From a virus: 50,765 nucleotides of DNA. Below are positions 11,581 through 48,700 of the stretch, one piece after another (the stretch's first letter is position 1; every line of letters begins with the position of its first letter). The stretch spans positions 1 through 50,765 of IMG/VR virus record IMGVR_UViG_3300034418_011047; one strand, written 5' to 3'. Under the pieces are notes generated by a model. The model was not told the DNA's origin. It searched no databases and saw only the letters and a list, made by a program, of their open reading frames with translations. A program made the position numbers and the translations under genes.

Positions 11581-11730
11581 GGGGGGACCATAATGTTTAA
11601 TGCACCCCCACCTGCGCGACATGGGGAAATACCCCCCACAAATTGTTTAAAACAAAAATTTTGTCGGAAAAATATATAGAAAAAAATTGTATCGTTTTTT
11701 TTCATGCAGCCACTACCTGACCACCTGTAA

Positions 11731-13651: not shown

Positions 13652-13684
13652 TTTGGATTTCTCATTCGGATGGGTATATATTTG
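13652..13684 (+). promoter_or_regulatory. promoter for the small-gene array
   Basis: TTTG (13,652-13,655) and TATATTTG (13,677-13,684) are separated by 21 nt, a consensus Bacteroidota promoter. It points into the small-gene array starting at 13,773. Confidence 0.75.
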
Positions 13685-13734
13685 CAGCAGTCCTGATGAG
13701 GACACGTTCATTGAAAATTCCATAATCTTAACCG

Positions 13735-13756
13735 ACAAACGGGGACACTCGTTTGT
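13735..13756 (+). promoter_or_regulatory. leader hairpin 1
   Basis: ACAAACG / CGTTTGT pair over 7 bp; the last stem base is 16 nt before the ATG at 13,773. The stem sequence differs completely from the G-rich hairpins that follow, but the spacing is the same. Confidence 0.65.
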
Positions 13757-13772
13757 GCAAAACCATTGTGTT

Positions 13773-14141
13773 ATGTTTTATCGAATCGTAAAGGAAACTT
13801 TCTCCCAAACCTCCGACATCTTCCAAACAGACAACCCATATTTGGCTGGTGTGGAATTCTACCAGATGATTCTGGAAATTGAGGGAAGGGATTACATGGG
13901 GGCATCGGAATTTGAGGGGTTTGTCGACAATGGGTATGTCATCAATTCTGAGACATACAGGCTCGATTCCTTTGAAAAGCCCGAAGATGCGAACACCATT
14001 CTTGTCACAATAGGGGAGACCATTTATGGGTCTACCACTTGGGCTGGCTTTTATAAGTTAGCCTATTATCACAAGGAGGTTAGGGCGTATGTTGCGGGCA
14101 TTGACGTTACACCAGAGCCATCAGATGAGGAGTACTATTGA
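13773..14141 (+). CDS. small protein of the MFYRI...DVTPEP family, copy 1
   Basis: 122 residues from the ATG at 13,773; an earlier in-frame codon exists, but the start chosen matches its paralogues and lies 16 nt after hairpin 1. It shares with the genes at 14,215 and 16,639 an N-terminal MFYRI, a central GVEFYQMI, then GYVINSETYRLDSFE, a VTIGETIYGSTTWAGFYKL segment and the C-terminal AYVAGIDVTPEP. No known domain is recognised. The charge pattern and lack of membrane segments suggest a soluble cytoplasmic protein. It is the first gene of a promoter-led array of small genes, probably early accessory or host-takeover factors. Confidence 0.7.
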   Translation: MFYRIVKETFSQTSDIFQTDNPYLAGVEFYQMILEIEGRDYMGASEFEGFVDNGYVINSETYRLDSFEKPEDANTILVTIGETIYGSTTWAGFYKLAYYHKEVRAYVAGIDVTPEPSDEEYY

Positions 14142-14174
14142 TTTTCTCCTCACTTGAACTAATTACTTTACAAC

Positions 14175-14198
14175 GAGGGCGGGGTAACACCCGTTCTC
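14175..14198 (+). promoter_or_regulatory. leader hairpin 2
   Basis: GAGGGCGGG / CCCGTTCTC, 9 bp with G-U pairs, loop GTAACA, followed by ACAAACTTTTTTT. It ends 16 nt before the ATG at 14,215. Confidence 0.8.
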
Positions 14199-14214
14199 AC
14201 AAACTTTTTTTGTT

Positions 14215-14589
14215 ATGCAATTGTACAGAATTACAAGCAAAAGCGAGGGCGTGTCAACAACCCTTTTTCAGCACTCCGAATGGAGTGTTGTTGGAGCAAA
14301 GTTTATGCAGTTCTACGTTGTCCAAACAATGGCTAACGAGAACATTGAAAAAATCGATGTGGGGTGGCTTGAGGAGTGGGCTGCGGGAGGCTGCGAAATT
14401 AACGGCAGCCGATATAGATTTGAAGAGTTCAGCGCAGAGCAAGCGGACTATGTAACCATCATTGTTGACGAGGAGGAATATGAAGGAACATGGGCGGATT
14501 TTTACCGAATGTTTTATCAGCATCCAGACAAAATTGTGAAGGCATACATAGGTAATGCGGATGTAACGCCTCAAAGGCATCCAAAATAA
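14215..14589 (+). CDS. small protein of the MFYRI...DVTPEP family, copy 2 (diverged)
   Basis: 124 residues. It is paralogous to the genes at 13,773 and 16,639: MQLYRI start, GGCEINGSRYRFEEF in the middle, a TWADFYRMFYQHPDK segment and AYIGNADVTPQ at the end. The central part has diverged more than in the other two copies. It is translated from the ATG 16 nt after a G-rich hairpin. Soluble, acidic, function unknown. Tandem paralogues in an early accessory region often reflect selection against host defences, but nothing here identifies a target. Confidence 0.7.
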   Translation: MQLYRITSKSEGVSTTLFQHSEWSVVGAKFMQFYVVQTMANENIEKIDVGWLEEWAAGGCEINGSRYRFEEFSAEQADYVTIIVDEEEYEGTWADFYRMFYQHPDKIVKAYIGNADVTPQRHPK

Positions 14590-14600
14590 TCATTAACCGA

Positions 14601-14624
14601 GAGGGCGGGGTAACACCCGCTCTC
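14601..14624 (+). promoter_or_regulatory. leader hairpin 3
   Basis: GAGGGCGGG / CCCGCTCTC, 9 bp, loop GTAACA, followed by ACAAACTTTTTTTGCT and the ATG at 14,641 (16 nt). Confidence 0.85.
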
Positions 14625-14640
14625 ACAAACTTTTTTTGCT

Positions 14641-14865
14641 ATGGAAACTTTAGTACTCAATTCGACCAACACGTTCGAACTGCCAAGCCGAGAGTTGTTG
14701 GTCGACCTCGAAATCGACCAAGGGTGCGGAGACCCGTTTACCCTCGCTGTTATCTTTATCGAGGAACATTGGCCATCGGACAGGGTAGTTCCTGACAACG
14801 TGGTCAATTTCCTTGTCGATTTAATTGTCGATTGGGGAGTAATTCGGGAGGCATTGAATTCTTAA
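14641..14865 (+). CDS. small acidic hypothetical protein
   Basis: 74 residues, acidic, with a hydrophobic core (PFTLAVIFIEEHWPS; NVVNFLVDLIVDWGVI). It starts METLVLNSTNTFELPSREL. No recognised domain. The start is fixed by the hairpin spacing, and the gene is one unit of the hairpin-led array. Confidence 0.6.
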   Translation: METLVLNSTNTFELPSRELLVDLEIDQGCGDPFTLAVIFIEEHWPSDRVVPDNVVNFLVDLIVDWGVIREALNS

Positions 14866-14868
14866 CCA

Positions 14869-14892
14869 GAGGGCGGGGTAACACCCGCTCTC
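14869..14892 (+). promoter_or_regulatory. leader hairpin 4
   Basis: GAGGGCGGG / CCCGCTCTC, 9 bp, loop GTAACA, then ATAATTTTTTTTGAT and the ATG at 14,908 (15 nt). Confidence 0.85.
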
Positions 14893-14907
14893 ATAATTTT
14901 TTTTGAT

Positions 14908-15183
14908 ATGAATTATGTAATCGTTAAAACTCGACATGGAGAGAGGAGAGGGAGAGTGGTCGGTCATTTTCCCTCCGCCAAACAGGCGAGGGAGGAAATG
15001 GTTGATATCGCCCTTTGGGAGGGCTACCACAAAAATGGGGAGGGGAGAGAGGTGCGTAACGGCAGACCATACGATTCTGCCAATAGGATGTATCTATACA
15101 CGAATGCCAATTGGCATCAGTTCACAGAGGATGTGTATACATGGGAGTGTATACCTGAGAGAGAGTGGAGAAAAGAGAGGTGA
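14908..15183 (+). CDS. small hypothetical protein
   Basis: 91 residues, basic, starting MNYVIVKTRHGERRGRVVGHFPSAKQAREEM, with later NRMYLYTNANWHQFTEDVYTWECIPEREW. The alternation of strand and helix resembles small phage proteins that bind nucleic acid or other proteins, but no family is recognised. It ends 28 nt before a promoter, so it closes this sub-operon. Confidence 0.6.
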   Translation: MNYVIVKTRHGERRGRVVGHFPSAKQAREEMVDIALWEGYHKNGEGREVRNGRPYDSANRMYLYTNANWHQFTEDVYTWECIPEREWRKER

Positions 15184-15211
15184 TTTTTTTTCATTCAGTT
15201 GAAGGGAGGGG

Positions 15212-15242
15212 TTGACTATGTCGATTCTTTCCTTTAACTTTG
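15212..15242 (+). promoter_or_regulatory. promoter P-A (one of a duplicated pair)
   Basis: TTGAC (15,212) and TAACTTTG (15,235-15,242), 23 nt apart start to start. The surrounding 60 nt, including an upstream T run and AGTTGAAGGGAGG, is repeated nearly identically at 17,673-17,734. Confidence 0.8.
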
Positions 15243-15260
15243 CGGTATATTTTTTTAACC

Positions 15261-15275
15261 GAGGCAATGCGCCTC
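15261..15275 (+). promoter_or_regulatory. leader hairpin 5
   Basis: GAGGC / GCCTC around AATGC, followed by ACAATACTTTTAGTT and the ATG at 15,291 (15 nt). It is shorter than the others but has the same spacing and the same ACAA after the stem. Confidence 0.65.
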
Positions 15276-15290
15276 ACAATACTTTTAGTT

Positions 15291-16280
15291 ATGGCTCATC
15301 ACATTGATTTCTCAAAAGGTTTCGCAAGCTTCGTAGGGACAGCACCTGCGTGGCATCAACTTGGAACGGTTTTGCCAGATGGCATTACTGTACAGGATGC
15401 ATTGGAGAAAGGAGGATTGGATTATTGGGTGGAAAAGCAGCCCAATGTTCACAGATTCCCAAATGGCAAGGAAGAGGTCAGCACCGACTCATTCTTCCTG
15501 TACAGGACAGACACAGACGCTGTCCTCGCAGGGTCTGTCGGGAGAGTGTACAAGACTCTCCAAAATGCGGAAGCGTTCACAATTGTGGACGACCTCGTTG
15601 CGGAGGGGTTGAAGATTGACACCGCAGGAGTTTTGAGAGGTGGTCAGAACACCTTTGTCAGCCTCCAAGCCCCATCATTCTCCGTGAAGGGAGACGAGGT
15701 GTCGCAGTACTTGCTGATTACCAATCCGCACGATGGCAAGGGCGCAATCCGTGTCATGTACACACCTGTCCGTGTGGTGTGTGCCAACACGCTTTCCGCT
15801 GCGCTCGGAAGCAAATCTGGTACACGCATTCGCCATAGCATTAATGCGGAGGCCAAGGTCAGGGAGACATTGGAGATTATGGGTTTACTGTCAGAGACAG
15901 GGCAGTCTACGCAGGAACTGTTTGAATATCTTGTCAGCGAGAGCGTGAACAGCAAAACTGTCAAGAACTACGCTGCGAACGTGCTGCTCACTCCTGAGGA
16001 GAAAAAAGCAGTCAAAAACGGTGCTGATTGGGAGGACGCTGTGTCCACTCGCAAGCGCAATCAGATTTCTGCAATCGCTGAGTTCACAGAGTCTGGCATT
16101 GGTCAGAACGTTCATAGTGGGACAGCATGGTGGATGTATAACGGATTTACGGGGTGGATGCGCCATGAGTGGAAAGACGTTGAGGCGCAATTCCCATCCG
16201 AAAGCCTGACTGCTGACCGCATGGCTGTGGAGGCTCTGAAAATGGCTGCCAATCCAAGCCAAATTATCCAACTTATCTAA
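15291..16280 (+). CDS. DUF932 phage/plasmid-like protein
   Basis: 329 residues from MAHHIDFSKGFASFVG; a longer frame exists, but it would start inside the promoter. Family features are visible: PAWHQLGTVLPDGIT near the start, a beta-rich middle with SFFLYRTDTDAVLAGSVGRVYKTLQNAEAF, PVRVVCANTLSAAL, and a C-terminal helical region with TAWWMYNGFTGWM. DUF932 (TIGR03299-type) proteins are widespread on phages and plasmids; their role is not established, though they are often found near replication or anti-defence genes. It has its own promoter and hairpin leader, so it is probably strongly expressed early. Confidence 0.88.
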   Translation: MAHHIDFSKGFASFVGTAPAWHQLGTVLPDGITVQDALEKGGLDYWVEKQPNVHRFPNGKEEVSTDSFFLYRTDTDAVLAGSVGRVYKTLQNAEAFTIVDDLVAEGLKIDTAGVLRGGQNTFVSLQAPSFSVKGDEVSQYLLITNPHDGKGAIRVMYTPVRVVCANTLSAALGSKSGTRIRHSINAEAKVRETLEIMGLLSETGQSTQELFEYLVSESVNSKTVKNYAANVLLTPEEKKAVKNGADWEDAVSTRKRNQISAIAEFTESGIGQNVHSGTAWWMYNGFTGWMRHEWKDVEAQFPSESLTADRMAVEALKMAANPSQIIQLI

Positions 16281-16287
16281 TCAAATC

Positions 16288-16311
16288 GGGGGCAGGGTAA
16301 CACCTGCTCCC
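16288..16311 (+). promoter_or_regulatory. leader hairpin 6
   Basis: GGGGGCAGG / CCTGCTCCC, 9 bp, loop GTAACA, then ACAAATCCTTTTGTT and the ATG at 16,327 (15 nt). Compared with hairpins 2-4 one C-G pair became A-T and outer pairs changed together. Confidence 0.85.
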
Positions 16312-16326
16312 ACAAATCCTTTTGTT

Positions 16327-16593
16327 ATGGGTTACGCAGATTTTGAGAAGTACCTGATGTATTGCATTGACTACCTCGAATTTTTTGGATTGCCCCTATC
16401 TGAGGCATTTTCAATAGTTGAAGATGCGAGTCACAGCAGGTACATACCTGACGATTACACGAACATTGCAGAGCGTGTGTACGATGCTTGTTTAGAACGT
16501 ACGGATTCGTACGAAACCGAGATGAATTGTCTGTATCTACCAACGTATATGCGCTTGACAGATTTTAAGTACAATGATTTTGCTGAATTTTAA
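16327..16593 (+). CDS. small hypothetical protein
   Basis: 88 residues, acidic, tyrosine-rich (YADFEKYLMYCIDYLEFFGLPL; CLYLPTYMRLTDFKYNDF). It is probably helical and has no recognised domain. It is one cassette of the array, with hairpins on both sides. Confidence 0.6.
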   Translation: MGYADFEKYLMYCIDYLEFFGLPLSEAFSIVEDASHSRYIPDDYTNIAERVYDACLERTDSYETEMNCLYLPTYMRLTDFKYNDFAEF

Positions 16594-16600
16594 TCACATC

Positions 16601-16622
16601 GGGGCAGGGTAATTCCTGTCCC
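16601..16622 (+). promoter_or_regulatory. leader hairpin 7
   Basis: GGGGCAGG / CCTGTCCC, 8 bp, loop GTAATT, then CACAAATCCTTTTATT and the ATG at 16,639 (16 nt). Confidence 0.85.
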
Positions 16623-16638
16623 CACAAATCCTTTTATT

Positions 16639-17019
16639 ATGTTTTACCGTATTATTAAACAAGAATATGATGGGTCTTGGAGCAGAGGTGAGACTGTCTA
16701 TCAGAGTGACAATTGGGCAATGGTAGGTGGCGAATTCTACCGCATTATTTGTGATTTGGAAGAAAAGCGACATTTGCTCGATGCCCATTTTAAGAAGTGG
16801 GTGGAAATGGGGTACGTCAACAACGGCTCAAAGTACTATTTGGAGACGTTTGAACAGGCAGTGGACGCTCAGGATGTGCTTGTGACCATCGATGGTAGCG
16901 TCAATTATACGACATCATGGGCTGGCTTTTACGCCATCTGCTTTCACAATCCAGATTTGAGTGTCAGAGCGTTCATTGGTGACGTAGACGTAACACCAGA
17001 GCCTAATTACAGTCGATAA
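16639..17019 (+). CDS. small protein of the MFYRI...DVTPEP family, copy 3
   Basis: 126 residues, closest to the copy at 13,773: MFYRIIKQ, GGEFYRIICDLEEK, GYVNNGSKYYLETFEQAVDAQDVLVTI, TTSWAGFYAICFHNPDLSVRAFIGDVDVTPEP. The three-copy family in one array, separated by unrelated genes, indicates duplication followed by cassette shuffling. Soluble; function unknown. Confidence 0.7.
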   Translation: MFYRIIKQEYDGSWSRGETVYQSDNWAMVGGEFYRIICDLEEKRHLLDAHFKKWVEMGYVNNGSKYYLETFEQAVDAQDVLVTIDGSVNYTTSWAGFYAICFHNPDLSVRAFIGDVDVTPEPNYSR

Positions 17020-17030
17020 TTTCTTAACGA

Positions 17031-17052
17031 GGGGCAGGGTAACACCTGCTCC
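17031..17052 (+). promoter_or_regulatory. leader hairpin 8
   Basis: GGGGCAGG / CCTGCTCC, 8 bp with one G-U, loop GTAACA, then CACAAACTTTTTTGTG. The stem ends 16 nt before the ATG at 17,069, or 15 nt counting from the C that extends the CCC run. Confidence 0.8.
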
Positions 17053-17068
17053 CACAAACTTTTTTGTG

Positions 17069-17428
17069 ATGATTTCGAAAAAACAATCAGAACAGATTTT
17101 TTTAGAAGCGTTGTGCAGCTTCAACTATTTGAGAAGCTACGGTCTTGAATTGGCCTACAACTTTTCGGACTACCAAACAGTCCGAAAAAATTGTCCAGAC
17201 CTGTCATTCGAAGAGGTACTGATGCACCTGCTGAGGAAAGGAGACAGCATACGAGTCTTAGATTTTGAGGGAGACTACAATTCCGAAATAAGAATCGGAG
17301 ATATTTGGGATAAAGTGCCTACAGCAAATTTGCGACATCTGGCTGCAATTGCAGAAGGAAACTACGATGCGGATGACTGTGACGCAGTGCTACAAACCGT
17401 ATTTTTCGGTGAGGTAATTTTTGGTTAA
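17069..17428 (+). CDS. small hypothetical protein
   Basis: 119 residues from the ATG at 17,069; a GTG lies one codon upstream, but the hairpin spacing favours the ATG. Features: MISKKQSEQIFLEALCSFNYLRSYG at the start, an acidic middle (RVLDFEGDYNSEIRIGDIWDKV) and ADDCDAVLQTVFFGEVIFG at the end. Predicted soluble and helical. No recognised family. Confidence 0.6.
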   Translation: MISKKQSEQIFLEALCSFNYLRSYGLELAYNFSDYQTVRKNCPDLSFEEVLMHLLRKGDSIRVLDFEGDYNSEIRIGDIWDKVPTANLRHLAAIAEGNYDADDCDAVLQTVFFGEVIFG

Positions 17429-17432
17429 AACA

Positions 17433-17456
17433 GAGGGCAGGGTAACACCTGCTCTC
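17433..17456 (+). promoter_or_regulatory. leader hairpin 9
   Basis: GAGGGCAGG / CCTGCTCTC, 9 bp, loop GTAACA, then ACAAATCATTTTATT and the ATG at 17,472 (15 nt). Confidence 0.85.
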
Positions 17457-17471
17457 ACAAATCATTTTATT

Positions 17472-17675
17472 ATGCTACACATTTTTTTCAGAGGCGCAAT
17501 TGGATTCGTTGTCTCATTTTTTGGGGTCATAGGCTTTGTCTGGGTCGTTGGACTTGTTTTCGGGGGCGGAATGGGTTGGATGTCAGAAAATCCCTTAGCG
17601 TTCTTTACAATCGTTCCTGCGCTTATCATAGGGGCGAATGTGGCACAGGAAGAGATTTTGAATGCGGTTGACTGA
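17472..17675 (+). CDS. small two-pass membrane protein
   Basis: 67 residues from the ATG set by the hairpin. Residues about 8-32 (AIGFVVSFFGVIGFVWVVGLVFGGG) and 42-56 (LAFFTIVPALIIGAN) are hydrophobic, with a short acidic tail. Small inner-membrane proteins in early phage regions can act in superinfection exclusion or membrane targeting; no family is recognised. It is the last gene before the second copy of the duplicated promoter. Confidence 0.6.
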   Translation: MLHIFFRGAIGFVVSFFGVIGFVWVVGLVFGGGMGWMSENPLAFFTIVPALIIGANVAQEEILNAVD

Positions 17676-17703
17676 TTTTTTTTCACTTAGTTGAAAGGAG
17701 GTC

Positions 17704-17734
17704 TTGACTATGTCGATTCTTCCTTTTAACTTTG
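17704..17734 (+). promoter_or_regulatory. promoter P-B (second of the duplicated pair)
   Basis: TTGAC (17,704) and TAACTTTG (17,727-17,734), same 23-nt offset as P-A. TTGACTATGTCGATTCTT is shared exactly with P-A. Confidence 0.8.
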
Positions 17735-17751
17735 TCATTCATTAATTCATC

Positions 17752-17763
17752 GGGCAGATGCCC
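17752..17763 (+). promoter_or_regulatory. leader hairpin 10
   Basis: GGGC / GCCC around AGAT, then ACAAACACATTAAGC and the ATG at 17,779 (15 nt). An in-frame ATG lies inside the stem; spacing in the array argues that the later ATG is used. Confidence 0.65.
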
Positions 17764-17778
17764 ACAAACACATTAAGC

Positions 17779-18255
17779 ATGGATATTATTAGCGTAGGAA
17801 ATCAACTGATGGCATCCGACCTCTCTGAGGATGTCAAGAAAATTGCAATCGAGGCGGTCGCTGAGCAGTACAATCTCAGAGTTTGCTCTGTGACCGGAGG
17901 CATTATCTCGCAAGGATACTGCGTTCAAGATGGCAGGTTCTATTTTAGCGACAATGAGTTGGATGAGGATGCCATTAACGAATGGATGGCAGCGAATGAT
18001 TCATTTCCATACAACAGCATTGAAGAGATGGCGGATGACTACGATGATGAGGAGGAGTATCCGTTTTATTATTGGACAGATTGGAGTGAGGGGGATGTCG
18101 AGAGTGTTATTAAGCTTGAAAATACGATTGCAAAAATGCGTAGGACGCTATTAACTATTCGTAACGATTATCACGAAGGTTTGGATGGCGAATGGTGGAA
18201 TCGGAAGTCCGCTTCCTTTGAGCGCATGATTGCACTTATTGACGATGTAATTTAA
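17779..18255 (+). CDS. hypothetical protein with a C-terminal module shared with the gene at 18,951
   Basis: 158 residues from the second ATG, chosen because the first lies in the hairpin stem. An N-terminal helical part (MDIISVGNQLMASDLSEDVK) is followed by a strand-rich part (CSVTGGIISQGYCVQDGRFYFS), an extremely acidic loop (MADDYDDEEEYPFYY), and a C-terminal module of about 40 residues with MRRTLLTIRNDYHEGLDGEW...FERMIALIDDVI. The same module ends the gene at 18,951. Unknown function; first gene under promoter P-B. Confidence 0.65.
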   Translation: MDIISVGNQLMASDLSEDVKKIAIEAVAEQYNLRVCSVTGGIISQGYCVQDGRFYFSDNELDEDAINEWMAANDSFPYNSIEEMADDYDDEEEYPFYYWTDWSEGDVESVIKLENTIAKMRRTLLTIRNDYHEGLDGEWWNRKSASFERMIALIDDVI

Positions 18256-18274
18256 TTAACCATTATTTTTAATC

Positions 18275-18290
18275 GGGGGCTTTGTCCCCC
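18275..18290 (+). promoter_or_regulatory. leader hairpin 11
   Basis: GGGGG / CCCCC around CTTTGT, then ACAAATATCTTTAAT and the ATG at 18,306 (15 nt). The 55 nt around it are nearly repeated before the gene at 18,951. Confidence 0.85.
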
Positions 18291-18305
18291 ACAAATATCT
18301 TTAAT

Positions 18306-18902
18306 ATGCCTAATTGGTGCTACAATTACATAACTATCACAGGCGAACCTCAATCCATCGCACGGATTGCGGATGTTTGCCAAAACCTACAGGGAGGGCT
18401 TTTTGAGGCTCTCATTGGCACTGCGCCAGATTCGGAGGCTGATTGGTATTGGGCTAACGTAGATTGGTTTGGGACAAAGTGGGATGTCGGATCGGAATTC
18501 GTAGAGGACATTGAAAAGGATACGATTGTGCTAAGTGGAGATACTGCATGGAGTCCTCCAACAAACTTTTGCGCTCGTCTGGCAAAGAAATATGGGGTAG
18601 AGGTGGAGATGCATTACGAAGAAATGGGCATTGATTTGTGTGGCCAGACACTTATTGATAAGCAAGGCAACTGCTCATATCAAGACTATGGTTTTGCTGA
18701 GGGAAAGTACAAGCTTGAAGGATATGTAGATTGGTACATGGAATGGGAATCCCACCTGTGTGAGTATTTGGCAGAACATATGAAGGACGAAGGGGATACT
18801 GATTTTGTAGGGAGAATCAAAGCGGAGTATCCGTATCTGCAGGAAGAGGAAGTAACAGAGTGCGCTGTCGATTTGACAGTAAAGTTCAAGGAAATTAATT
18901 AA
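18306..18902 (+). CDS. Api92-like ferredoxin-fold protein, copy 1
   Basis: 198 residues from MPNWCYNYITITGE, the hallmark start of Api92-like (DUF1281/YubB-type) proteins; an upstream in-frame codon would put the start inside the hairpin. Further family features are VDWFGTKWDVG, LSGDTAWSPPTNF, and a YEEMGIDLCGQTL segment. The proteins are common on phages and plasmids and have a ferredoxin-like alpha/beta fold; no activity is established. A shorter paralogue lies at 20,896. The C-terminus (QEEEVTECAVDLTVKFKEIN) resembles the end of that paralogue. Confidence 0.85.
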   Translation: MPNWCYNYITITGEPQSIARIADVCQNLQGGLFEALIGTAPDSEADWYWANVDWFGTKWDVGSEFVEDIEKDTIVLSGDTAWSPPTNFCARLAKKYGVEVEMHYEEMGIDLCGQTLIDKQGNCSYQDYGFAEGKYKLEGYVDWYMEWESHLCEYLAEHMKDEGDTDFVGRIKAEYPYLQEEEVTECAVDLTVKFKEIN

Positions 18903-18919
18903 CCATTATTTTTAATCGG

Positions 18920-18935
18920 GGGGGCTTTGTCCCCC
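18920..18935 (+). promoter_or_regulatory. leader hairpin 12
   Basis: GGGGG / CCCCC around CTTTGT with two extra G 5' of the stem, then ACAAATATTTTTATT and the ATG at 18,951 (15 nt). Confidence 0.85.
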
Positions 18936-18950
18936 ACAAATATTTTTATT

Positions 18951-19484
18951 ATGGACATGAAAGAAAAAATGTTGGAAGTTTTATCCGAGATTGTAAGGGT
19001 AAACTCCATTGCCAGAATCTTTGACACCGATTCAGATGTGGCAAAATCTCTGAATAAGGTAGCCAATAAAGCGGATGCTTTAATCCACCACAGCAATGGC
19101 GTGGTTTACTGCTGTGCGATTGAGATGGGTGACGAGATTTGGGTGTACGGAGCGGAGTGGGATAAGGTCATAGATGAGTCTTACATGACCTTTGCAACAG
19201 AGCAAGAGTTTGAAGAGTACTTGCGAGACAATGCATTTGGGGTAATCTACCAAGGCAAGGGATATCGCACAGAAAATATGTTAGGATATGTAGACTTGAA
19301 AAATTGCCATATTTTACGTTATGCGGACGCATACATAGAGGCGTTGGAGGAATTGACAGGAGAAATGCAAGAAACCTTGCAGACAATACAAAGTGACTGC
19401 GAGATGGCTTTAAACGGAGAATGGGATAAGTCTGATGATGGATTTGAGGCTATGATTTACTTAATCGAACAAATAATAGACTAA
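18951..19484 (+). CDS. hypothetical protein with a shared C-terminal module
   Basis: 177 residues from the ATG 15 nt after the hairpin. Acidic and helical (MDMKEKMLEVLSEIVRV...), with a middle strand region GVVYCCAIEMGDEIWVYGAEWDK. The C-terminal 40 residues (MQETLQTIQSDCEMALNGEW...FEAMIYLIEQIID) match the end of the protein at 17,779. The shared pattern is M-x2-TL-x-TI-x2-D...L-(D/N)-GEW...FE-x-MI-x-LI. It overlaps the next start codon by one base (TAATG). Function unknown. Confidence 0.65.
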   Translation: MDMKEKMLEVLSEIVRVNSIARIFDTDSDVAKSLNKVANKADALIHHSNGVVYCCAIEMGDEIWVYGAEWDKVIDESYMTFATEQEFEEYLRDNAFGVIYQGKGYRTENMLGYVDLKNCHILRYADAYIEALEELTGEMQETLQTIQSDCEMALNGEWDKSDDGFEAMIYLIEQIID

Positions 19485-21408: not shown

Positions 21409-21415
21409 GGTCGGC

Positions 21416-21444
21416 AGGGCAGGGTAATTCCTGCCCTACTTTTT
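21416..21444 (+). terminator. intrinsic terminator
   Basis: AGGGCAGG / CCTGCCCT pair perfectly over 8 bp around GTAATT and are followed by ACTTTTT. The stem and loop resemble the leader hairpins of the array, but no start codon follows closely (60 nt to 21,504). Confidence 0.85.
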
Positions 21445-33025: not shown

Positions 33026-33217
33026 ATGACATTTAAAGAAAACGCACAAGTACAAGTAGTCGAAGCTAGCCTGACTATTACATTGATGGATCGACACGTT
33101 GCAGTAGAAGACATTTTAATTGATTCGGAAGATATTGATAGAGTAGAGGAAGCTCTTGAAATTCTACGTCAATTAGAAAGAGAAGCAGAGAATCAAAACA
33201 TAGTGAAATATATATGA
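33026..33217 (+). CDS. small acidic hypothetical protein
   Basis: 63 residues: N-terminal strands (AQVQVVEASLTITLMDRHVAVEDILI), then an acidic helix (SEDIDRVEEALEILRQLEREAENQN). No recognised domain. ATGA-coupled to the next gene. Confidence 0.55.
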   Translation: MTFKENAQVQVVEASLTITLMDRHVAVEDILIDSEDIDRVEEALEILRQLEREAENQNIVKYI

Positions 33218-35163: not shown

Positions 35164-35249
35164 GCCCGGATGATGAAATTGGCAGTCATGCAAGGTTTAA
35201 GCCCTTGTGGCCAGTATTGGCCGTGTGGGTTCGAGTCCCACTCCGGGTA
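35164..35249 (+). tRNA. tRNA-Leu (anticodon UAA)
   Basis: Acceptor GCCCGGA / TCCGGGT (one G-U), anticodon stem CAAGG (35,191-35,195) / CCTTG (35,203-35,207) with loop TTTAAGC and anticodon TAA at 35,198-35,200, a long variable arm (TGGCCAGTATTGGCCG) as expected for Leu, and T-arm GTGGG-TTCGAGT-CCCAC. The 3' CCA is not encoded. It decodes TTA, a common leucine codon in these genes. Confidence 0.93.
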
Positions 35250-35263
35250 CAAAACAATTTATT

Positions 35264-35434
35264 ATGTACACTATTTACTATTACAACAACGAAAATGAGA
35301 AAGTCATTTATGTATGTTATACGATGGAGGAGGCTATTGAGTTTACTAAACAACATCAGGTGTCCTTGGTGTTAGATGAAGCAAATAATATTGTAACAGG
35401 TGAAGTTATTCGCCAATTAAATCCTACGACATGA
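35264..35434 (+). CDS. small hypothetical protein
   Basis: 56 residues from the ATG 15 nt after the tRNA (MYTIYYYNNENEKVIYVCYTM...VLDEANNIVTGEVIRQL). A longer in-frame extension would run through the tRNA and is rejected. Short strand-helix protein, unknown function. ATGA-coupled to the next gene. Confidence 0.55.
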   Translation: MYTIYYYNNENEKVIYVCYTMEEAIEFTKQHQVSLVLDEANNIVTGEVIRQLNPTT

Positions 35435-39069: not shown

Positions 39070-39743
39070 ATCCCTCTCTCTTCTATATATTTTATTGCCC
39101 TTAGATGAGCCTCAGCTACTATCCTCCGGAAGTTGGGGTTCATCATTTTATCAAACTCGTCCGGATTGTTGTAAAAACCTGTCTCTGTTAAAATAGCGGG
39201 ATGATCTGTTTTGGCTAATACATACAGCCTTTTACCTTCCTTTACTCCCCTATCCTTTAGTTTTACCTTAGCGACTAATTCTTTTTGAAATACTTCGGCT
39301 ATTCTTCTACCTATGGGAGAGTAATAGTAAGTTTCGATTCCTCTAAAGGCTGTGCTAAATTCATCCCCAGGACCTGCATTGCCGTGTACAGATACGAATA
39401 TCTTTGGCAGATCTGTATGGTATGTATTGGCTTTATCCACTCTATACTTTAGAGCATTTCCAAAGTCTTCAGGGTTAGGAATAGTGACCAAGTGCTGTAT
39501 GCTCATCTGCTTTAACTCCTGTGAGATGTGCTTTACGATGTCTTGATTGTATTCGTACTCCAACAGTTGTTTCCCATCCTTTATAGGGGATCGTTTTCCT
39601 TGCGTCTTTGCTCCATGACCGGGATCTAATATCCAAAAGTATCTTTGAGACAGGTTTATTATTTGAGCGTCCACTTCAATGTCTTGCCCATCGTTTACAT
39701 AATAACCTGTAAACATATTTTTAAAGAACTTTTTAATAGCCAT
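39066..39743 (-). CDS. N-acetylmuramoyl-L-alanine amidase
   Basis: 225 residues with the amidase_3 zinc core: FWILDPGHGAKTQG (first His ligand), a YEYNQDIV segment with a conserved Glu, IFVSVHGNAGPGD (second His), RGVKEGKRLYVL and PAILTETGFYNN (catalytic Glu). It cleaves the MurNAc-L-Ala bond. There is no signal peptide, so it is either released through a holin or carried with the virion. It overlaps the 3' end of the giant gene by 11 nt, which suggests joint late expression and perhaps a joint role in DNA entry. Confidence 0.92.
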   Translation of the reverse strand: MAIKKFFKNMFTGYYVNDGQDIEVDAQIINLSQRYFWILDPGHGAKTQGKRSPIKDGKQLLEYEYNQDIVKHISQELKQMSIQHLVTIPNPEDFGNALKYRVDKANTYHTDLPKIFVSVHGNAGPGDEFSTAFRGIETYYYSPIGRRIAEVFQKELVAKVKLKDRGVKEGKRLYVLAKTDHPAILTETGFYNNPDEFDKMMNPNFRRIVAEAHLRAIKYIEERGI

Positions 39744-42700
39744 AGTATAGGTATTGGTCTTTTGCTTCTTTAATAGCTTCTTCTCTTAATTTTTTAAAGT
39801 CCTCTAATAATTTTTCTGTAGACATATTTTCATAATCGTAATCCATAGCATATTGGTCTACCTTTGCGCCATATATGGTTGCTACTCTGTTTGCTAATTC
39901 TATTTTTTCTTGATTATTTAATTTGTAAGTATTTCCTTTATGGGTAACTGTATTACCGGGCATCCAATAACGATTTTGCACGTTTAAATTTGTTCTACTT
40001 AAAAACAACTTATGTCCCGGACTTTTTTTACTTGTTTCATTCACCCAATTATCCAACATTTCTAAGGCATTGTTCATAAATAAGAAATTTTCCGGAAAAA
40101 CCAGCCTATCTTCAACAGGTTTTCCAAGTGGATCTAACAAGGCTCTTTTCTCTCCACTAAGATATGGAGTAAGCAATCCAGAGAAAAATGCTCTTTTTAC
40201 AAGGTTGTATGCATATGTTTCTGTAAAAGTCGTGGTCTCCGGAATATATCTAGGTTTATCCGTTACTTGTCCATATGCTTTTGACATTTGGCTATAAAGG
40301 TTAGCACCTAATGGAACGTACATACTACCCTTTTCCCCAAGAAATTTAGCCAAAGCTATAATTTTACGTTCTTGTTCTTTAGCTGTGTCTGTTGTTGGAT
40401 CTACGGCTTCGGAAATACCTGCTAATTTTACGATCTCATTTAATGACCTACTAAAAGACTGAGCAGTTATAAACTGAAGACCGCCTAAAATTATGCTTAA
40501 ATTAGCTTGGTTAACAGAGTTCTCGCTTTTAGGATTCAGAGCTGCTGCATCATACATTTGACCTATTGGATAAAGTACAATCCCTAATGGGGAATCCGCA
40601 TAGTTCATGCTAATTACCCAGTCTGGATATTTCTTGGGGAATGGTCGAATTTGTAACTCAAGAATTCTATAATGCTTATCTATATATTCATCCTTCACGA
40701 AATTAGTTGAACCTAACCCGGTAATCCGCATTCTCCAATCATCGTTAACTTTAAGAATTTTGTTACCTTCTTCATCATCGTCAAAATCAAACATAGAGAA
40801 AAACAAAGAAATAAACGTTGAGAACCCTAGGGTTGCTGCTGCCATTTGTCTGTAACCTTTTTCTTTTGCCTCCTGTGTACTACCTTCACTAAATACATTA
40901 ATTCCACCTGCGATAAGGCCAAAAGGTGTATAATAAGTAGCTTGTTCTATAAATGCAGCTGGTGTCCGAACAATTGGAAACAATGTCATTAAAATCATTT
41001 TTCCAAGCATCTGTGCCACATTATCTTTTTCTTTAATCCTAACATTAGCTACACGAGATGCTTGTGTAACGTGCATAATCAACGCCTCGTCTGCTAAATA
41101 CGCAGCTTCTTCTACTAACTCAGGGTTCATTTTAGTAACTCGTAATTCTCTAATACGGGCTTGCTTATATCCAAGAGGAATTTTCTTTCCCGCAGTTTTT
41201 AAAATGGCGATTTCTTCTTCAACCTGTTCTTTAATTTCTGCTTGGTGTATTCTACCTAATTCTGTTTTTAATTTAATTACAAAATCTGCATCGTTTGGGT
41301 CTACTCCATTATCTATTAGCTTTGCTCTTGCCACTTGTGCAGCTTTAAAATTCATAATAGATGATTTTATCAGCATATCCCCCATAGCTAAAGCTCTAAC
41401 TGCAAGCATAGGTGGAGTATACGCAAGTAGCATTACCCGTGCAATATATTTTTTTAAATCACTTGGGTTTTTTACAGGAGACACTTTAAAAATGTTCTCC
41501 ATAAAATTATTAATTTCAATGTCTAACGGGGAAAATCCTGAACCTGTTGGATCATTATATCTTGTAGTAGCAATACCGTATTTTAATTGATATCCAAATT
41601 CATAAATAAATCTAGAAATAAAATTTTTGACATTATTTGCGTAACTTAAAAAGATATTGTTTATTTCTGGATCTGGTTCTCCTCTAAACAACTCTCCCAT
41701 AATGTAAGATAACGCTTCTCTTTCATTTTTCCTGCCTCTCACAAACGCTGTTGCATATTGAGGTAGTAACACCATAAAGTCTCGCATTAAATTAGGACCA
41801 GCAGCTTTAAAAGCCCCTAAAAATGCCCTTACACCAGAAGTAAATCCACTAAGAAGATTAACAATACCTAATGTTTGTAACTTCATTAAAAATAACTTCT
41901 TCCAAGGATCTTTTTTCAATCTTGCTATCTCATAATCAATTTCTTTATAAATCCTTTCTTTATCTCTAACAGAGAAAGCTTTATTAGCTTTATCAACTAA
42001 TTCTTTTAGTTTTTCAATTTTGTCTCTGTTACCCTCAGCAATGGCATATTTCTCAAACCAAAGATCAGCCATCCGAGCTTCATTTAAAACGCCCATAGAA
42101 AGCTCCTCTACCATTCTTTGAGTGGCAGATTTAGTTTTCTTTCTTAGCTTTTTAATCCTAGTCCTAATTTTGGCAGCATTTTCATAATCTTTAGCTCTTA
42201 CAGCTTCATCTAAACGCCTTTCAAGAATATCAAGATTTTCTTTTAATCGTTGTTTTAAAATCTTTTTCTTCTTATCCTCCATCAAGTCTTTCCAAATTAA
42301 TTTAAACTCCTCTTGGAATTTACGAGCTTCCATAGGAGATAAATTTAATGCTTGGACAAGTTTAGACGATAGTGATTGGGATTGGTCTCCCTTTGTGTAA
42401 TGATTTATAACTACTTCAGAAAGAGTTGTACCTAATTCTCTGGCTCCTTGACGAATCTTATCTCCAAAAGAAGTATTGTATTCTGACGAAATAACTATAA
42501 ACACTTTGTCAAGAACATTATGCAATAAAGCTATTTCCTCTTCTTCTAAAAATCTAAATTGTTCAATAATACTATTCCGTATGGCTCTTGCTGCGGGTCC
42601 TTTTAACGACCTATTTTTAATTACATCCTGTACTGTCCCTAATTCTGGATTTTCACTAGTAATTTTTTCTATCTCAGATAGAATTAAATTATAAATGTTT

Positions 42701-45700
42701 TCCATTTGAACTGCTACCTCTGGCCCTCCTCTACGAAGAGCTTGTTTCATACGCTCTTCCATTTCTAAGAGACGATCTACTAATTCCTGTTCTTGAATTT
42801 TCGCAATATCAATCTTATTGTTAGATGTTAGAAAATTCCAAATGGCGGTTGCATCGTAGTTTTGACCACTTAAAAGATTGTAAATATCTACTTCCTCAAC
42901 AAACGCTTCTTTTACTTTTAATATGTTACCTTTAAATTTATAAATCAATCCTGTTATGATATCTACAATTCCTTCTATTTGATCTTGATTGAAAATTAGT
43001 CCTGCACTTAATTGCCCTCTACCACCCTTGCTGAATTTATCCCATCCTCTTTTAATTAAACTATCTCCTTTTTTTGAAGCTTTTGTAGATCCCTTTATCC
43101 TTGTAGCAGGTCTCCCCTGTAATCCTAGTACTTTATTAATTACTTCTTGTATTTCTTCAGGGGAATGGCTTACCATAAGACTGGCAATCTCCTCTTCTAA
43201 CGTACGTCCAGATTCAACTTTTTGACCTAAGTTGTTAATAAATTTTTCTTCAAGTTCATTTATTACGTCCGAATAGAGACTTTCAGGCACAACTTTAGCG
43301 ATACCTGCTCGTAATTCGGTTGCAGCCGTTCTTCTAAATCTTGCAATATCTTGTTGCATTTGCACAGCTAAACGGGTGTCTCCTGTTTGCCGGACTCTAT
43401 CCCACACAATGTCCATAATAATAGTGTACATTGCATCCTCTGCTCTCCTTTGCTGTTCTTGCTCTTTAGTCTCTCTACTAGGGATTTGACTTGTAATATT
43501 CTTTCCCGCCTTAGCTTCTTCAAATATTTCGCTATAGCTTAATCCATCTAATATAAGATTTTCAATAACAATTCGTGCAGCATTAGCAACCCGTTGTAAA
43601 GAAATAGGTAAATATTTGCTATCCTCGTCTAACAGAAGAGCCTCCTGTAGTTCTACATCCACTCGTGGATCATTTGCTGCTCTACGAATCCGCTTAGACT
43701 CTTTGGCTTTTTCGTCCGTTTTACCTGTATTTTGACTAGAAGGCGGTTGCTGACTAGGTGGTTGCTGACCAGAAGGCTGCGGTTGATTTGGTGTAGGCGT
43801 TGAGGGCTGCTGCGGAGTTGCCTGACTAGCTGGTTGCTCTGGCTCAGCTTGTGCTTCTTCAGGAGCAAGAATTTCTTCTTCAGCTGTTTCTTCCCCTTTT
43901 ATTGCCTCTTCCAACTTTTCATCAAAATCGTCATTAATGTTATCTATCTCCTCTTTTGTAGGTTCGGATTCGATGATTTCATTTAATACGGCAATCCTAT
44001 CAGTAATTTGATTAACACGATTAATTAAAGCTTCAATAAGATTTAAAAGCTCTGCTCTTTCTCCAAGAGTAAGCGTATCCTCTGTAAACTTTTTGACGTT
44101 TGCATCTATCTGCTTTGCCAAATTTTCTCTTTCCTGCTCTAAATCCCGTAACTCGTCTTTTTCTAATTTACGATTTTTTAAATCTTCTAAAGCTTGTTCT
44201 CTTTCTTGTTTAATCTGCTCACGAAGTTCCCGTATTCTTCTTGTCTCCTCATCCTCCTCTTGTTTCTTACGCCTTCTTCTAAAACGAATGCGGTCTAATA
44301 AATTTGCAATATTAGGTAACTTAGTAAAGCTAAGAATTACTTTGTCTGAAACTGGAGCAAGATCCGCATCTAACATTCTAGCGTAAATCTTACGCATTTT
44401 ACGGTTTAAGACAATACGTTCTCCGTTATATTCAAGTACATTATTGTACATAGTCTGTAGCCAAATGGCAAAACGATCAAACACATTGGCAAGTTTAGCA
44501 TTTTCAGTTCGCCCTTCCATTACATATGCCTCAAACCCTTTGGCAAACTTTTCTCTAAAATCAATTGTACCAAATGTTGCTTTTGACCATCTTTCTACAA
44601 TCCGGATTTCGTCTGCTGTTAACTCAGACTCAAATTCATGGGCAAGCTCGTGCAATGGGCTACTTACATCCGGATTTGTAAGCGCATGAATAATAATTTT
44701 ACCATCCCCTGTTGTTACAATTGCTGCCCTTTGTTCTCCATCTTTTGTCTGATACACCGTATCTCCCTGCTGATAATCTTCCTCAGTAGGTTCATATAAT
44801 TCCAAATTACTATTTAACCTAACACCGTTCAATGACCTGGCTGCAAAATCACTTTCCGACATCCCCTCTTCTTTAGCCATGCCAAAAGAAATCAACTGGT
44901 GATGCGGTTCAGGGAAATTAGTCCTTCCTAAAACTTCTGGTCTAATGAAATTAAAACTACCATCAGGCATCTGGACTCTCATCAGCTGTCTTCCATCGGC
45001 AGTCTCAACTACTCTATCGTTATGGGAAGCATCTATCTTTTCCCCTAAAGTCAGCTTTTTCATAATCCCTGCAACCCGATCCATTTCAGCAAGGATACGA
45101 TTTTTCTCTGCCTGATTGGCTTCGTTTGTGTTATCAGCAAGCCCACTTTGTTCAAGAAAACTTTGTAAAGTATAGTAATAAATACTATAATCTTCAAATG
45201 TAGGTGTCCCTTTTGTCTTTAAATCAAAAAAGTTAGCAACTTTCTTTGCTATTGGAGTAGCAACTCCTAACTTTTTTAATCCATCTATGAATTTAGCCTT
45301 ATCGTAATTATTATTAAAAGCCTCATTCATATTCGAAGCTACAAGATTTCGCAATGCTTCGACACTATTTTCCGATACAGATAATTCTAATACATCCATC
45401 ATACGGATGTCATTAGAATTTTCAAGATAATTATTTACTATCAGATAATACAGTTGCTTTTCTGTTATATTATCTAAATTCGTATAATTTAGATCGGCTT
45501 TTTCTTTAGATAAAATTTCTTCAGCGATTGCTGCAAAATCAGGATTTATAGTAAACTTTGTCTTTGGAAGCTTTGCACGAAGTTGCCCAATCTTTTGATC
45601 TAAGTCAAAGGTATCTTGATTGGCATTAATGCGAAGCCTACGCTGAAGCTGTAATTCTTCATAGGTATCCCACATCTCAGACATGGTAATCATGCCGATC

Positions 45701-48700
45701 CTACGCAAATCCATTAAAGTAGCATGATCCGATTGACGAATTAAATCATTAATCCATGCTTTAAGGGTACGAGTTTTTGGGCTAACCCTTTCAATGGCTT
45801 GACGCAGATTTGTGAGATACCTACTTCCTGGAGAACCATCTACACCTTTAATGTAAATAGAAGATGCCAATTTAAAATTGGTAGGCATCTGACTATTGTT
45901 TTTTACAATACCTTCTAATCTTTCTTTGTACCAATCATTTTTTCGCTTGTTGTTCCTTTTCGCCCAAGCTGCTGCTCTTGCGTCTATTAAACTGGCGTTT
46001 GCTTGTGCCTCTTCTAAAGAAAGTCCAAAAGTTTGTACTAAAGTTTCTACGAGTTCCGATCTGTTTCTAGGCTTGTACATCGGTCCTCTACTTGTGGACT
46101 CTATCTCTATTTCTTGCTTTGTAGCAAGTCCAGCCTCTATCAACGCAGCTCCATCTAAAACTATGGTATATCTACCATTGCTATCAATCTGTGCAGTTTT
46201 AACTACCTTATCTGCAACTTTTTTTAATTCTGCGGGAACGTTTTCTTCTGAGCTATATGAAACAGTATATTCTACAGATGGTACAAGAGGCCCAAACATA
46301 CTTCGTCCAAATCCTTTTGGATCAACTCCTCTCTTTTCATACTCTTGACGAATTTGCGTATTTAAATCGAATATCTCTTCGGTTAGCTCATTAAGCTGTT
46401 GTTGGATTTTAGGAGGAACTTTACGAACAGCTTCTAATTTTATATCATTGTATTTCTTACGAATTTTAGTAATACCTTCAGCCAGTTTTTCCATACCCTT
46501 TTCAGAAAGCGCACCTTTTGTTCCATACTCCCTTTGAACTTCCTTAACTAGCTTATCTATTTCAGCTTGTTCCTGCTCCAATATTTCAGCAACAACTTCT
46601 TCATCCACTTTCCTACCAAAAAGTTCACTTACACGTTCATCTATGCCAATTTTTTTACGAGCTTCATCAAGTATTTCATTATATTCTTTTTGTAATTCAA
46701 TTACCCTAGCCCGTAGTTCCGCTTGTCTTTTGCGAACCTCTGCCTTTATCTTCCTTAGTTTGGTAGATGGTAAATGATGAGCATCCTTTTTGGCTTGTTC
46801 TGTGCCAAATATTTCTGCGTATAGACGATTTATTTTAGTTTCGTACTTAGCTTTTTCTTCGCTGTATTTTCTTTGGGCTTCTTCTAATTGTTGGGATCGT
46901 AATTTTTGCCATCCTGTAATTATTGAAGGCGCAGCAAAACTTTGCCCAGGAGGCATTTCTGAGATAATATCTGTCACATACTTTACAGCTAAGTCGTAAG
47001 CATTTTTTACGCCTAATAATTCTTCTGCGTTAGATTTAGTGATACCAAGTATTTGAGTGATGGCATCATAAACTTTCTCTAAAAATCCTTTTTTTCTTTT
47101 CTTTAATAAATATGTGAATTTTTCGTCCGATAAATGTGCTACAAATTCGTAGATGTTTGATATAGCATATTTATCCAAATTATGGTCGTTTACAGCATCT
47201 TTGGCAAATTCCGTGTATAATTTTTGTAATTTTAATACAGCTTTCTTTTGGTTTTCGGTAATAGCTGGGTCTTTTTGATTTTCTAAAACAGAATAAATAG
47301 TTCTAACTGTAAACCCATGAATTAATTCATGTATAAAAATCCTCGCAATAATTTCTTGACCATCCTTCAAATAGTCAATGTTATTTCCTTTTAACTGATC
47401 TAAATACTGAAAAAATTCTTCTGGATTAACGTATATTACATTAGTACCATAATTAAAAAAACCTTCCGCTGTTAAGTCTACTTCATCCCGACTACTTGGT
47501 ATGTAAAAAGGTATTGCAAAATTATCGACAAAAGGTTTTAATACTTTATAAATTGCTTTTGATTGTCCTTTTAAAGGAATTAACTTAAAGACTTCTGCTA
47601 GTGTGTATACATTACTATCTCGTGGTTGAACTCCTCTTTCTTTTGCATATGCTTCAAAGTCGGCTTTGTCTTTTTCATTAAGTCTTTTTATTAATTTTTT
47701 ATAAATAGTCAAAATCTGCCGTCTGGTTTTTTCGTCTAATTTATTATAAGCTTTTAAATCAGGAATAAGCCCTGAATTGACTGTTTTATCAGTTTTAAAC
47801 TCTAGTGAAAGGGAGCTATTAGGAAATGTTCTACCAAATAAAAGAAGTTTTACTAATCGCAAATATTCTTTAAAAATGTCTTTTATCTGCTCATTTGGAA
47901 TTAAATCGCTGACCATTTCTACGAAAGGATCTAAAGATTCTGCATTGCGTAGTTTTAGATTATGTTTATTTTTTTTAATAGTCGGCTTGTTTACTGATCC
48001 CAACTCAAGAGTGGCATTCTCTCTTTCTCTTCTCGCTTGCTCTAATGGTGCATTGGAAGGACCTCTTTGTAATGCCTCGTTGTATAGTGCAATCTCATCG
48101 TTTAATGCATCTATCTCTTTCTGCTTTTCCTCCAACTCGGGGTTGATAGGAGCAGCCTCTTCAGGACGAGCAAATTGATTGTTAAAACTTGTTACATAAT
48201 TGTCATACTTATTATTGACAAACTGTACATTTGCTGCCTCAGATGTCTGCGCCAATTCATCCTGCCTCCGATTTTCAATCTGTGTGAGAACATCAAATAA
48301 TTGCTTGTTTTCATCAATTAATCGCTGATCGTCTTCACTAAAATCTGTTTCCCCCTCAGCGGTAGAACGTGCTAATTTGCTCAGATTTTCAAAAGTACCA
48401 TCAGCTACCAGATTCTCACCCTGCATACGAGCGTCCATCAAATCATCATACACCTCAGACTCTGTACGATTTGCCAGTTCCATCGCTTGAATAGCATCAT
48501 CCAAACTTATTTCACCTTTATTTACATCGTCCTTATACCGGGCATCAAACCTTTCATTGATAGCATCCTCATCCGCATCTTCTGCTTGCAATGCTTCTTG
48601 TCGTGCTGCCTCTACCTGAGCTGATTTTGCCCTTGCTTCATTGGTCGGTCCTTCAGGTTTTGGAGCCAACCTACGCATCTCATTAGCCTGTCTGTTTAAC

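What the first reader, a model, noticed from the sequence alone, without database searches (positions are those of the whole stretch)
13735..18953. Twelve leader hairpins at a fixed 15-16 nt from small-gene start codons
Every gene starting at 13,773, 14,215, 14,641, 14,908, 15,291, 16,327, 16,639, 17,069, 17,472, 17,779, 18,306 and 18,951 begins 15-16 nt after an RNA hairpin. Most stems are followed by ACAA and an A/T-rich tract. The stems differ (GGGCGGG/CCCGCTC, GGGCAGG/CCTGCTC, GGGGG/CCCCC, GAGGC/GCCTC, ACAAACG/CGTTTGT) but pairing is kept, so structure and spacing are conserved rather than sequence. As terminators they would cut off every gene just before its start. They could instead be translation-initiation structures replacing a Shine-Dalgarno, RNase-processing or stabilising 5' caps, or attenuators relieved by a phage factor. 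A hairpin placed the same way also precedes 33,026 (17 nt). I know of no described system with this regularity.
Basis: partly seen in the sequence, partly recalled or inferred. Interest (0 to 1): 0.85.

Follow-up and report, generated by a model that had tools for sequence, protein, structure and literature searches.

The report
Hairpin leaders on phage early genes
Twelve neighbouring genes in a relative of the crAss-type gut phages each carry a small RNA hairpin placed exactly 15-16 letters before the start of the protein, just upstream of the sequence that bacteria of this group use to start translation, so the hairpins probably help ribosomes start on each gene separately, but no experiment has tested this.

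Summary
All 12 consecutive genes from 13,773 to 18,951 have a hairpin whose last paired base lies 15-16 nt before the ATG; the rate at other ATGs is 16/597. The window is a Crassvirales-like phage fragment. Bacteroidota-type promoters upstream of 13,773, 15,291 and 17,779 put the hairpins inside the transcribed leader. Stems hold two compensatory changes, and their G-U pairs make the coding-strand RNA more stable than its complement, so this is RNA. They are not ordinary terminators: ACAAA, not U, follows the stem, while true terminators occur elsewhere in the phage. The 15-16 nt after the hairpin look like a strong Bacteroidota non-Shine-Dalgarno initiation region: adenines at -13/-12 in 12/12 genes (19/49 elsewhere), purine at -3 in 12/12. 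A TTAAC-like box borders most stems on the 5' side; in hairpin-free leaders the same box lies about 15-19 nt before ATG. The hairpin thus looks inserted between two standard leader elements. Internal hairpins are unit-specific, and each unit's first hairpin is its weakest. Best reading: a translation-initiation leader with an insulating hairpin. No relative carrying this gene region was found, so conservation between species is untested.

The parts
13653..13684 (+). Bacteroidota-type promoter of unit 1 (TTG...TATATTTG)
   Evidence: pattern scan; consensus TTTG/TANNTTTG from PMC6847099
13728..13733 (+). TTAACC box at the 5' foot of the first hairpin
   Evidence: sequence; TTAAC position test
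13735..13756 (+). leader hairpin of gene 13773-14141 (-10.7 kcal/mol, gap 16)
14175..14198 (+). leader hairpin of gene 14215-14589 (GGGCGGG type, -15.1, gap 16)
14601..14624 (+). leader hairpin of gene 14641-14865 (GGGCGGG type, -17.6, gap 16)
14869..14892 (+). leader hairpin of gene 14908-15183 (GGGCGGG type, -17.6, gap 15); the only one of the 12 that passes the terminator scan
15212..15242 (+). Bacteroidota-type promoter of unit 2 (TTGA-N19-TAACTTTG), part of a 62-bp duplicated block 15181-15242
15261..15275 (+). leader hairpin of gene 15291-16280 (DUF932 protein; -7.0, gap 15)
16288..16311 (+). leader hairpin of gene 16327-16593 (GGGCAGG type, -18.2, gap 15)
16601..16622 (+). leader hairpin of gene 16639-17019 (GGGCAGG type, -15.0, gap 16)
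17031..17052 (+). leader hairpin of gene 17069-17428 (GGGCAGG type, -14.9, gap 16)
17433..17456 (+). leader hairpin of gene 17472-17675 (GGGCAGG type, -16.1, gap 15)
17704..17734 (+). Bacteroidota-type promoter of unit 3 (TTGA-N19-TAACTTTG), in the second copy of the 62-bp block
17752..17763 (+). leader hairpin of gene 17779-18255 (GGGC/GCCC, -5.9, gap 15)
18275..18289 (+). leader hairpin of gene 18306-18902 (GGGGG type, -8.5, gap 16)
18919..18935 (+). leader hairpin of gene 18951-19484 (GGGGG type, -11.8, gap 15)
16312..16326 (+). example of the initiation region between hairpin and ATG (ACAAATCCTTTTGTT); its counterpart in all 12 leaders has AA at -13/-12 and a purine at -3
   Evidence: positions of the translation determinants from PMC6847099
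35164..35249 (+). tRNA-Leu(TAA) whose acceptor stem ends 15 nt before the ATG at 35264, followed by ACAAAACAATTTATT: a tRNA in the place of the hairpin

Best explanation
Each hairpin is part of a modular RNA leader: TTAAC-like box, hairpin, 15-16 nt A/U-rich initiation region (ACAAA, then a U-rich tract, then purine-NN-AUG). The 15-16 nt region is the actual ribosome start site of a Bacteroidota-type, Shine-Dalgarno-independent gene. The hairpin abuts its 5' edge, about where the 30S footprint ends, and most likely acts as an insulator: it ties up upstream sequence and separates the start site from the preceding gene, so that each small early gene in a shared transcript is initiated independently and strongly; it may also stabilise the 5' side of the RNA. 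Shown by sequence: position, spacing, pairing, RNA strand bias, promoter matches upstream of three of the genes, A-13/A-12 and R-3. Inferred: expression as three units, that the hairpin folds in vivo, the insulating effect, and any gain in translation.
For: 12/12 hairpins at gap 15-16 against 16/597 other ATGs. The fixed distance is to the downstream ATG; the distance from the upstream stop codon varies from 3 to 33 nt. The first genes of the three promoter-led units also carry one, while the last genes of units 1 and 2 are followed by a promoter block and no hairpin, so the element belongs to the downstream gene. AA at -13/-12 in 12/12 against 19/49 other genes (Fisher p = 1.3e-4) and purine at -3 in 12/12. 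In F. johnsoniae A-12, A-13 and A-3 raise translation, bS1 is proposed to touch -12 to -15, and low structure from -20 to +20 is favoured (PMC6847099). TTAAC is enriched 15-19 nt before ATG in this phage and several Crassvirales, with a second cluster at 40-49 nt in this phage, where hairpins intervene. Two compensatory pair changes among seven copies. The coding-strand RNA folds better than its complement in 10 of 12 and equally in 2. Replacing hairpins by shuffled sequence lowers predicted accessibility of the start region slightly (mean z +0.7 over 12 genes). A tRNA occupies the same place at 35,249.
Against: The in-silico insulation effect is weak and about zero or negative in 5 of the 12 genes. 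Many genes of the same phage, including 20896, a paralogue of 18306 judged by its sequence, have no hairpin, so it is not required for translation. In several leaders ACAAA can itself pair weakly with UUUGU near the start. The seven main copies are paralogous, so part of the regularity is copied rather than selected. No relative carrying the element in this gene region was found.
Confidence: 0.5

Rival explanations
1. 5' RNA stabiliser or processing boundary: the polycistronic early RNA is cut in the A/U-rich stretch between stop codon and hairpin, and each hairpin then protects the 5' end of one gene's mRNA, as 5' stem-loops stabilise bacterial mRNAs.
For: A/U-rich single-stranded stretch (TTAACC, TAATC) directly 5' of most stems. 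In units 2 and 3 the predicted start of transcription lies only about 10-15 nt upstream of the hairpin, which would resemble a processed end. 5' UTR hairpins are reported to raise mRNA half-life (PMC6993053). The tRNA at 35,164-35,249, which must be processed, sits in the same place.
Against: Stability alone does not need a fixed 15-16 nt to the AUG. Stems of 4-9 bp are too short for RNase III (general knowledge). No processing data.
Confidence: 0.2
2. Binding site for a phage or host RNA-binding protein that represses or activates the whole early set (operator hairpins).
For: One regulator could address 12 genes at once; T4 gp43 binds a hairpin about 40 nt upstream of its own start codon, with a UAAC loop (PMC3014915), and seven loops here contain GUAA.
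Against: Loops differ completely between classes (GUAACA, GUAAUU, CUUUGU, AAUGC, AGAU, GGGACACU), so there is no shared recognition sequence besides the stem foot and ACAAA.
Confidence: 0.1
3. Promoter-terminator-like shuffling cassettes (as the PeSLs of T4-like phages): repeated hairpins are homology blocks by which small accessory genes are exchanged.
For: Cluster of small genes mostly without Pfam match, each between copies of the same block; copies are most alike within a unit, as expected from tandem duplication or conversion; paralogous genes 13773, 14215 and 16639 lie in the array.
Against: Most blocks carry neither a terminator nor a recognisable promoter; five of the 12 stems share too little sequence with the main set to serve as homology; explains copying, not the spacing kept by unrelated stems.
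Confidence: 0.1
4. Transcription attenuators or weak terminators relieved by a phage factor.
For: GC-rich stems, similar in sequence to the terminator-like hairpin at 21416-21437; a U-rich tract lies a few nt downstream; one of the 12 (14,869-14,892) passes a terminator scan.
Against: In 11 of 12 the 8 nt after the stem hold at most two U, whereas the phage's own terminator-like hairpins run straight into U tracts. Two hairpins lie within about 15 nt of predicted transcription starts.
Confidence: 0.07
5. Hairpin promoters, extruded in DNA, for the giant virion RNA polymerase that transcribes Crassvirales early genes, as N4 virion polymerase uses DNA hairpins.
For: Crassvirales early genes are transcribed by a virion polymerase and their programme is likened to that of N4 (PMC10136315; PMC8375218); the promoter of that enzyme was not described in the passages read; hairpins stand at a fixed place before the early genes.
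Against: Bacteroidota-type promoters precede the three units. G-T pairs on the coding strand mean C-A mismatches on the other strand; the reverse strand folds less well (-120.9 against -160.5 kcal/mol summed, RNA parameters). ACAAA reads as a translation element inside the RNA. crAss001, cr108_1, DAC15, cr113_1 and Fpv2 lack regular hairpins of this kind before their early genes.
Confidence: 0.05

Closest known systems
Bacteroidota translation initiation region without Shine-Dalgarno (Kozak-like A-3/A-6 and A-12/A-13; Flavobacterium johnsoniae, PMC6847099)
   Same: A at -12 and -13, purine at -3, A/U-rich start region, no Shine-Dalgarno, presumed Bacteroidota host.
   Different: The described regions are simply low in structure; no dedicated hairpin at a fixed distance on every gene of a cluster is described there.
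Synthetic 5' insulators with a hairpin before the ribosome binding site (RiboJ, PMC6993053)
   Same: A hairpin directly upstream of the start region that exposes it and separates it from upstream sequence.
   Different: Man-made and coupled to a self-cleaving ribozyme; here natural, repeated 12 times, and no ribozyme found by Rfam.
PeSL cassettes of T4-like phages (Arbiol 2010, Comeau 2014; as cited in PMC4503421)
   Same: Repeated stem-loops between small early genes of a phage.
   Different: PeSLs combine terminator and early promoter; these leaders mostly have neither, and the fixed distance is to the ATG.
N4 virion RNA polymerase hairpin promoters (general knowledge)
   Same: Short hairpins at a fixed place before early genes of a phage type with a virion RNA polymerase.
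   Different: N4 has few, at the DNA level, with small conserved loops; here twelve, varied loops, and RNA-strand bias.

Membership tests
Intrinsic transcription terminator | U-rich tract directly after the stem | tested here: not met
   0-2 U in the 8 nt after the stem in 11 of 12; 1 of 12 passes the terminator scan
Intrinsic transcription terminator | located at the end of a transcription unit | tested here: not met
   first genes of the three promoter-led units also have the hairpin in their leader
Bacteroidota non-SD translation initiation region | adenines at -12/-13 | tested here: met
   12/12 against 19/49 other genes
Bacteroidota non-SD translation initiation region | A (or purine) at -3 | tested here: met
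   purine 12/12, but A itself in only about half
Bacteroidota non-SD translation initiation region | supports initiation in vivo | not testable with these tools
   needs a reporter assay
Structured RNA leader | compensatory changes that keep pairing | tested here: met
   2 of 9 pairs with double changes, 96.8% of cells paired against 49-60% for slid controls; paralogous copies only, few independent events
Structured RNA leader | covariation between species | not testable with these tools
   no relative carrying the region was found
Rfam RNA family | match at the family's gathering score | tested here: not met
   only tRNA-Leu reaches its threshold in 10-38 kb
PeSL shuffling cassette | terminator plus early promoter in one block | tested here: not met
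N4-type vRNAP hairpin promoter | transcript starts just downstream of a DNA hairpin | not testable with these tools
   strand bias and upstream promoters argue against it
RNase III processing site | long double-stranded stem | tested here: not met
   stems are 4-9 bp

The most novel reading that the evidence does not exclude
A Crassvirales-type phage uses a dedicated, repeated hairpin module, placed against the 5' edge of the ribosome footprint, as a structural part of translation initiation on its early genes in hosts whose ribosomes do not use Shine-Dalgarno pairing; a tRNA can stand in for the hairpin.
Probability: 0.25. Interest if true: 0.75.

Novelty: new variant of a known kind. Interest (0 to 1): 0.55.

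Why it matters
How ribosomes of Bacteroidota and their phages choose start sites without Shine-Dalgarno is an open question. A natural array of twelve leaders that vary the hairpin while holding start-region elements and spacing constant is a ready test set. If the hairpin boosts or insulates initiation, it is also a usable part for engineering gut Bacteroidota.

Tried and rejected
Relatives of the region: IMG/VR scans with DUF932, DNA polymerase, the 18306 protein, a paralogue alignment and three leader patterns, and phage and plasmid BLAST, gave no second copy of this gene cluster. TerL gave six contigs at 78-100% identity, all short; L006, the one reaching furthest, ends before the early region. 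A covariance model of the seven alike leaders found no convincing match in 35 related or comparison loci besides L077, and its two matches in 396 Bacteroidota genomes did not look like leaders of genes on the flanks inspected (fast filters, so weak cases could be missed). A genome-wide scan for the post-hairpin sequence found, among 45 hits, a set of Hymenobacter atpE leaders without hairpins and no clear hairpin leader. Hairpins 14-18 nt before genes in other Crassvirales, where printed, were mostly stems with U tracts directly after them. A hammerhead ribozyme was considered for CTGATGAG near 13,694; Rfam shows none. The weak Termite-leu match at 21,410 (E = 0.4, below threshold) was not pursued.
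Full report
What the window is. The window is a 50,765-base virus record. Its major head, portal and large terminase proteins match PHROG families, and the terminase is 40% identical to Flavobacterium phages of the Fpv group and 33-36% to human-gut crAss-like phages, so it is a fragment of a Crassvirales-like phage with a presumed Bacteroidota host. The small genes at 13.7-19.5 kb lie at the start of the rightward gene block, where early genes lie in relatives (Fpv2, crAss001).

The observation. All 12 genes from 13,773 to 18,951 have a hairpin ending 15 or 16 nt before the ATG. The same criterion is met by 16 of 597 other ATGs and by 3 of 37 other plus-strand genes checked (23195, 33026, 35431). 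At 33,026 the stem runs into U7 and looks like a terminator. Seven stems are close copies, 18,306 and 18,951 are a second pair, and 13,773, 15,291 and 17,779 have their own. Structure is kept across these unlike stems. Among the seven copies two of nine pairs show double changes, and 96.8% of cells are paired against 49-60% for slid controls. These are paralogues, so the number of independent events is small, probably two.

RNA, coding strand. Twelve G-U pairs occur in the stems; the reverse complement is less stable in 10 of 12 and equal in 2. Bacteroidota-type promoters (TTG, about 19-21 nt, TAnnTTTG) lie before 13,773, 15,291 and 17,779, two of them in an 89%-identical 62-bp block. For 15,291 and 17,779 the expected start lies about 10-15 nt upstream of the hairpin, so the hairpin would be transcribed. 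The hairpin is tied to the downstream gene: its distance to the ATG is fixed, its distance from the upstream stop codon is 3-33 nt, first genes have it, and no hairpin directly follows the last genes of units 1 and 2.

A regularity within units. If the promoters define three units, the internal hairpins are unit-specific: GGGCGGG three times in unit 1, GGGCAGG four times in unit 2, GGGGG-CUUUGU twice in unit 3. The promoter-proximal hairpin is the weakest of its unit each time (-10.7, -7.0, -5.9); by chance 1 in 60. This pattern was noticed after the fact.

The start region. Between hairpin and ATG lies ACAAA (ACAA in ten of twelve), a U-rich tract and purine-NN. Adenines fill -13 and -12 in 12/12, against 19/49 other genes (p = 1.3e-4), and -3 is a purine in 12/12. 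In Flavobacterium johnsoniae A-12, A-13 and A-3 raise translation; bS1 is proposed to contact -12 to -15, and the region -20 to +20 is low in structure (PMC6847099). The hairpin therefore abuts the upstream edge of a standard non-Shine-Dalgarno start region. A sampled 200 kb of Maribacter shows the same A-rich zone but no fixed hairpins.

The 5' side. A TTAAC or TTAATC-like box precedes most stems. TTAAC is enriched 15-19 nt before ATG in this phage, Fpv2, cr113_1, G002 and G009; in the window a second cluster at 40-49 nt corresponds to hairpin leaders. Hairpin-free leaders such as 20,402 (TTTAACC, 15 nt, ATG) look like the same leader without the hairpin. The bin choice was exploratory and counts are small.

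A tRNA in the same place. tRNA-Leu at 35,164-35,249 is followed by CAAAACAATTTATT-ATG, the same spacing and sequence style. One case only.

Mechanism. I judge an insulated translation-initiation leader most likely (0.5). Predicted accessibility of the start region is only slightly better with the native hairpin than with shuffled ones (mean z +0.7), so insulation is the weakest inferred step. Stabilisation or processing (0.2), operator (0.1), shuffling cassette (0.1), attenuator (0.07) and virion-polymerase promoter (0.05) remain.

Generality. No other copy of this cluster was found in IMG/VR, phage or plasmid collections. One outside leader of the same build was found: L077:10604-10648, TTATTAACC-GAGCG...CGCTC-ACAAATTCTTTTATTATG before a 65-aa gene on another phage contig. 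Other Crassvirales tested lack regular hairpins of this kind. With a single genome, conservation is unproven.

Noticed in passing
35164-35266: tRNA-Leu ends at the same distance before an ATG as the hairpins and is followed by a similar ACAAAACAATTTATTATG.
   Followed up: partly
19912, 20402, 20660, 23375, 32641 and relatives: A TTAAC(C) box about 13-19 nt before ATG recurs in this phage and several Crassvirales; function unknown.
   Followed up: partly
15181-15242 and 17673-17734: A 62-bp block holding the stop codon, T8 and a Bacteroidota-type promoter is duplicated at 89% identity.
   Followed up: partly
13773, 14215, 16639; 18306 and 20896; 17779 and 18951: Paralogous or similar small-gene sets in the early cluster; 20896 lacks the hairpin that its paralogue 18306 has.
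   Followed up: partly
about 11618-11650; L006 around 170-200: A GGGG..CCCC hairpin in non-coding DNA is shared with a contig whose terminase is 78% identical.
   Followed up: no
L077:10604-10648: Single leader of the same build (TTAACC, stem, ACAAATTCTTTTATTATG) in another phage contig.
   Followed up: partly
L081, L083, L086, L106, L113, L114, L118, L123: Hymenobacter atpE-like leaders share CCCCACAAAC..TTTTTTTATG without a hairpin.
   Followed up: no
39733-50763 (-): Open frame of over 3,600 aa; whether it is a virion RNA polymerase or another virion protein was not settled.
   Followed up: no
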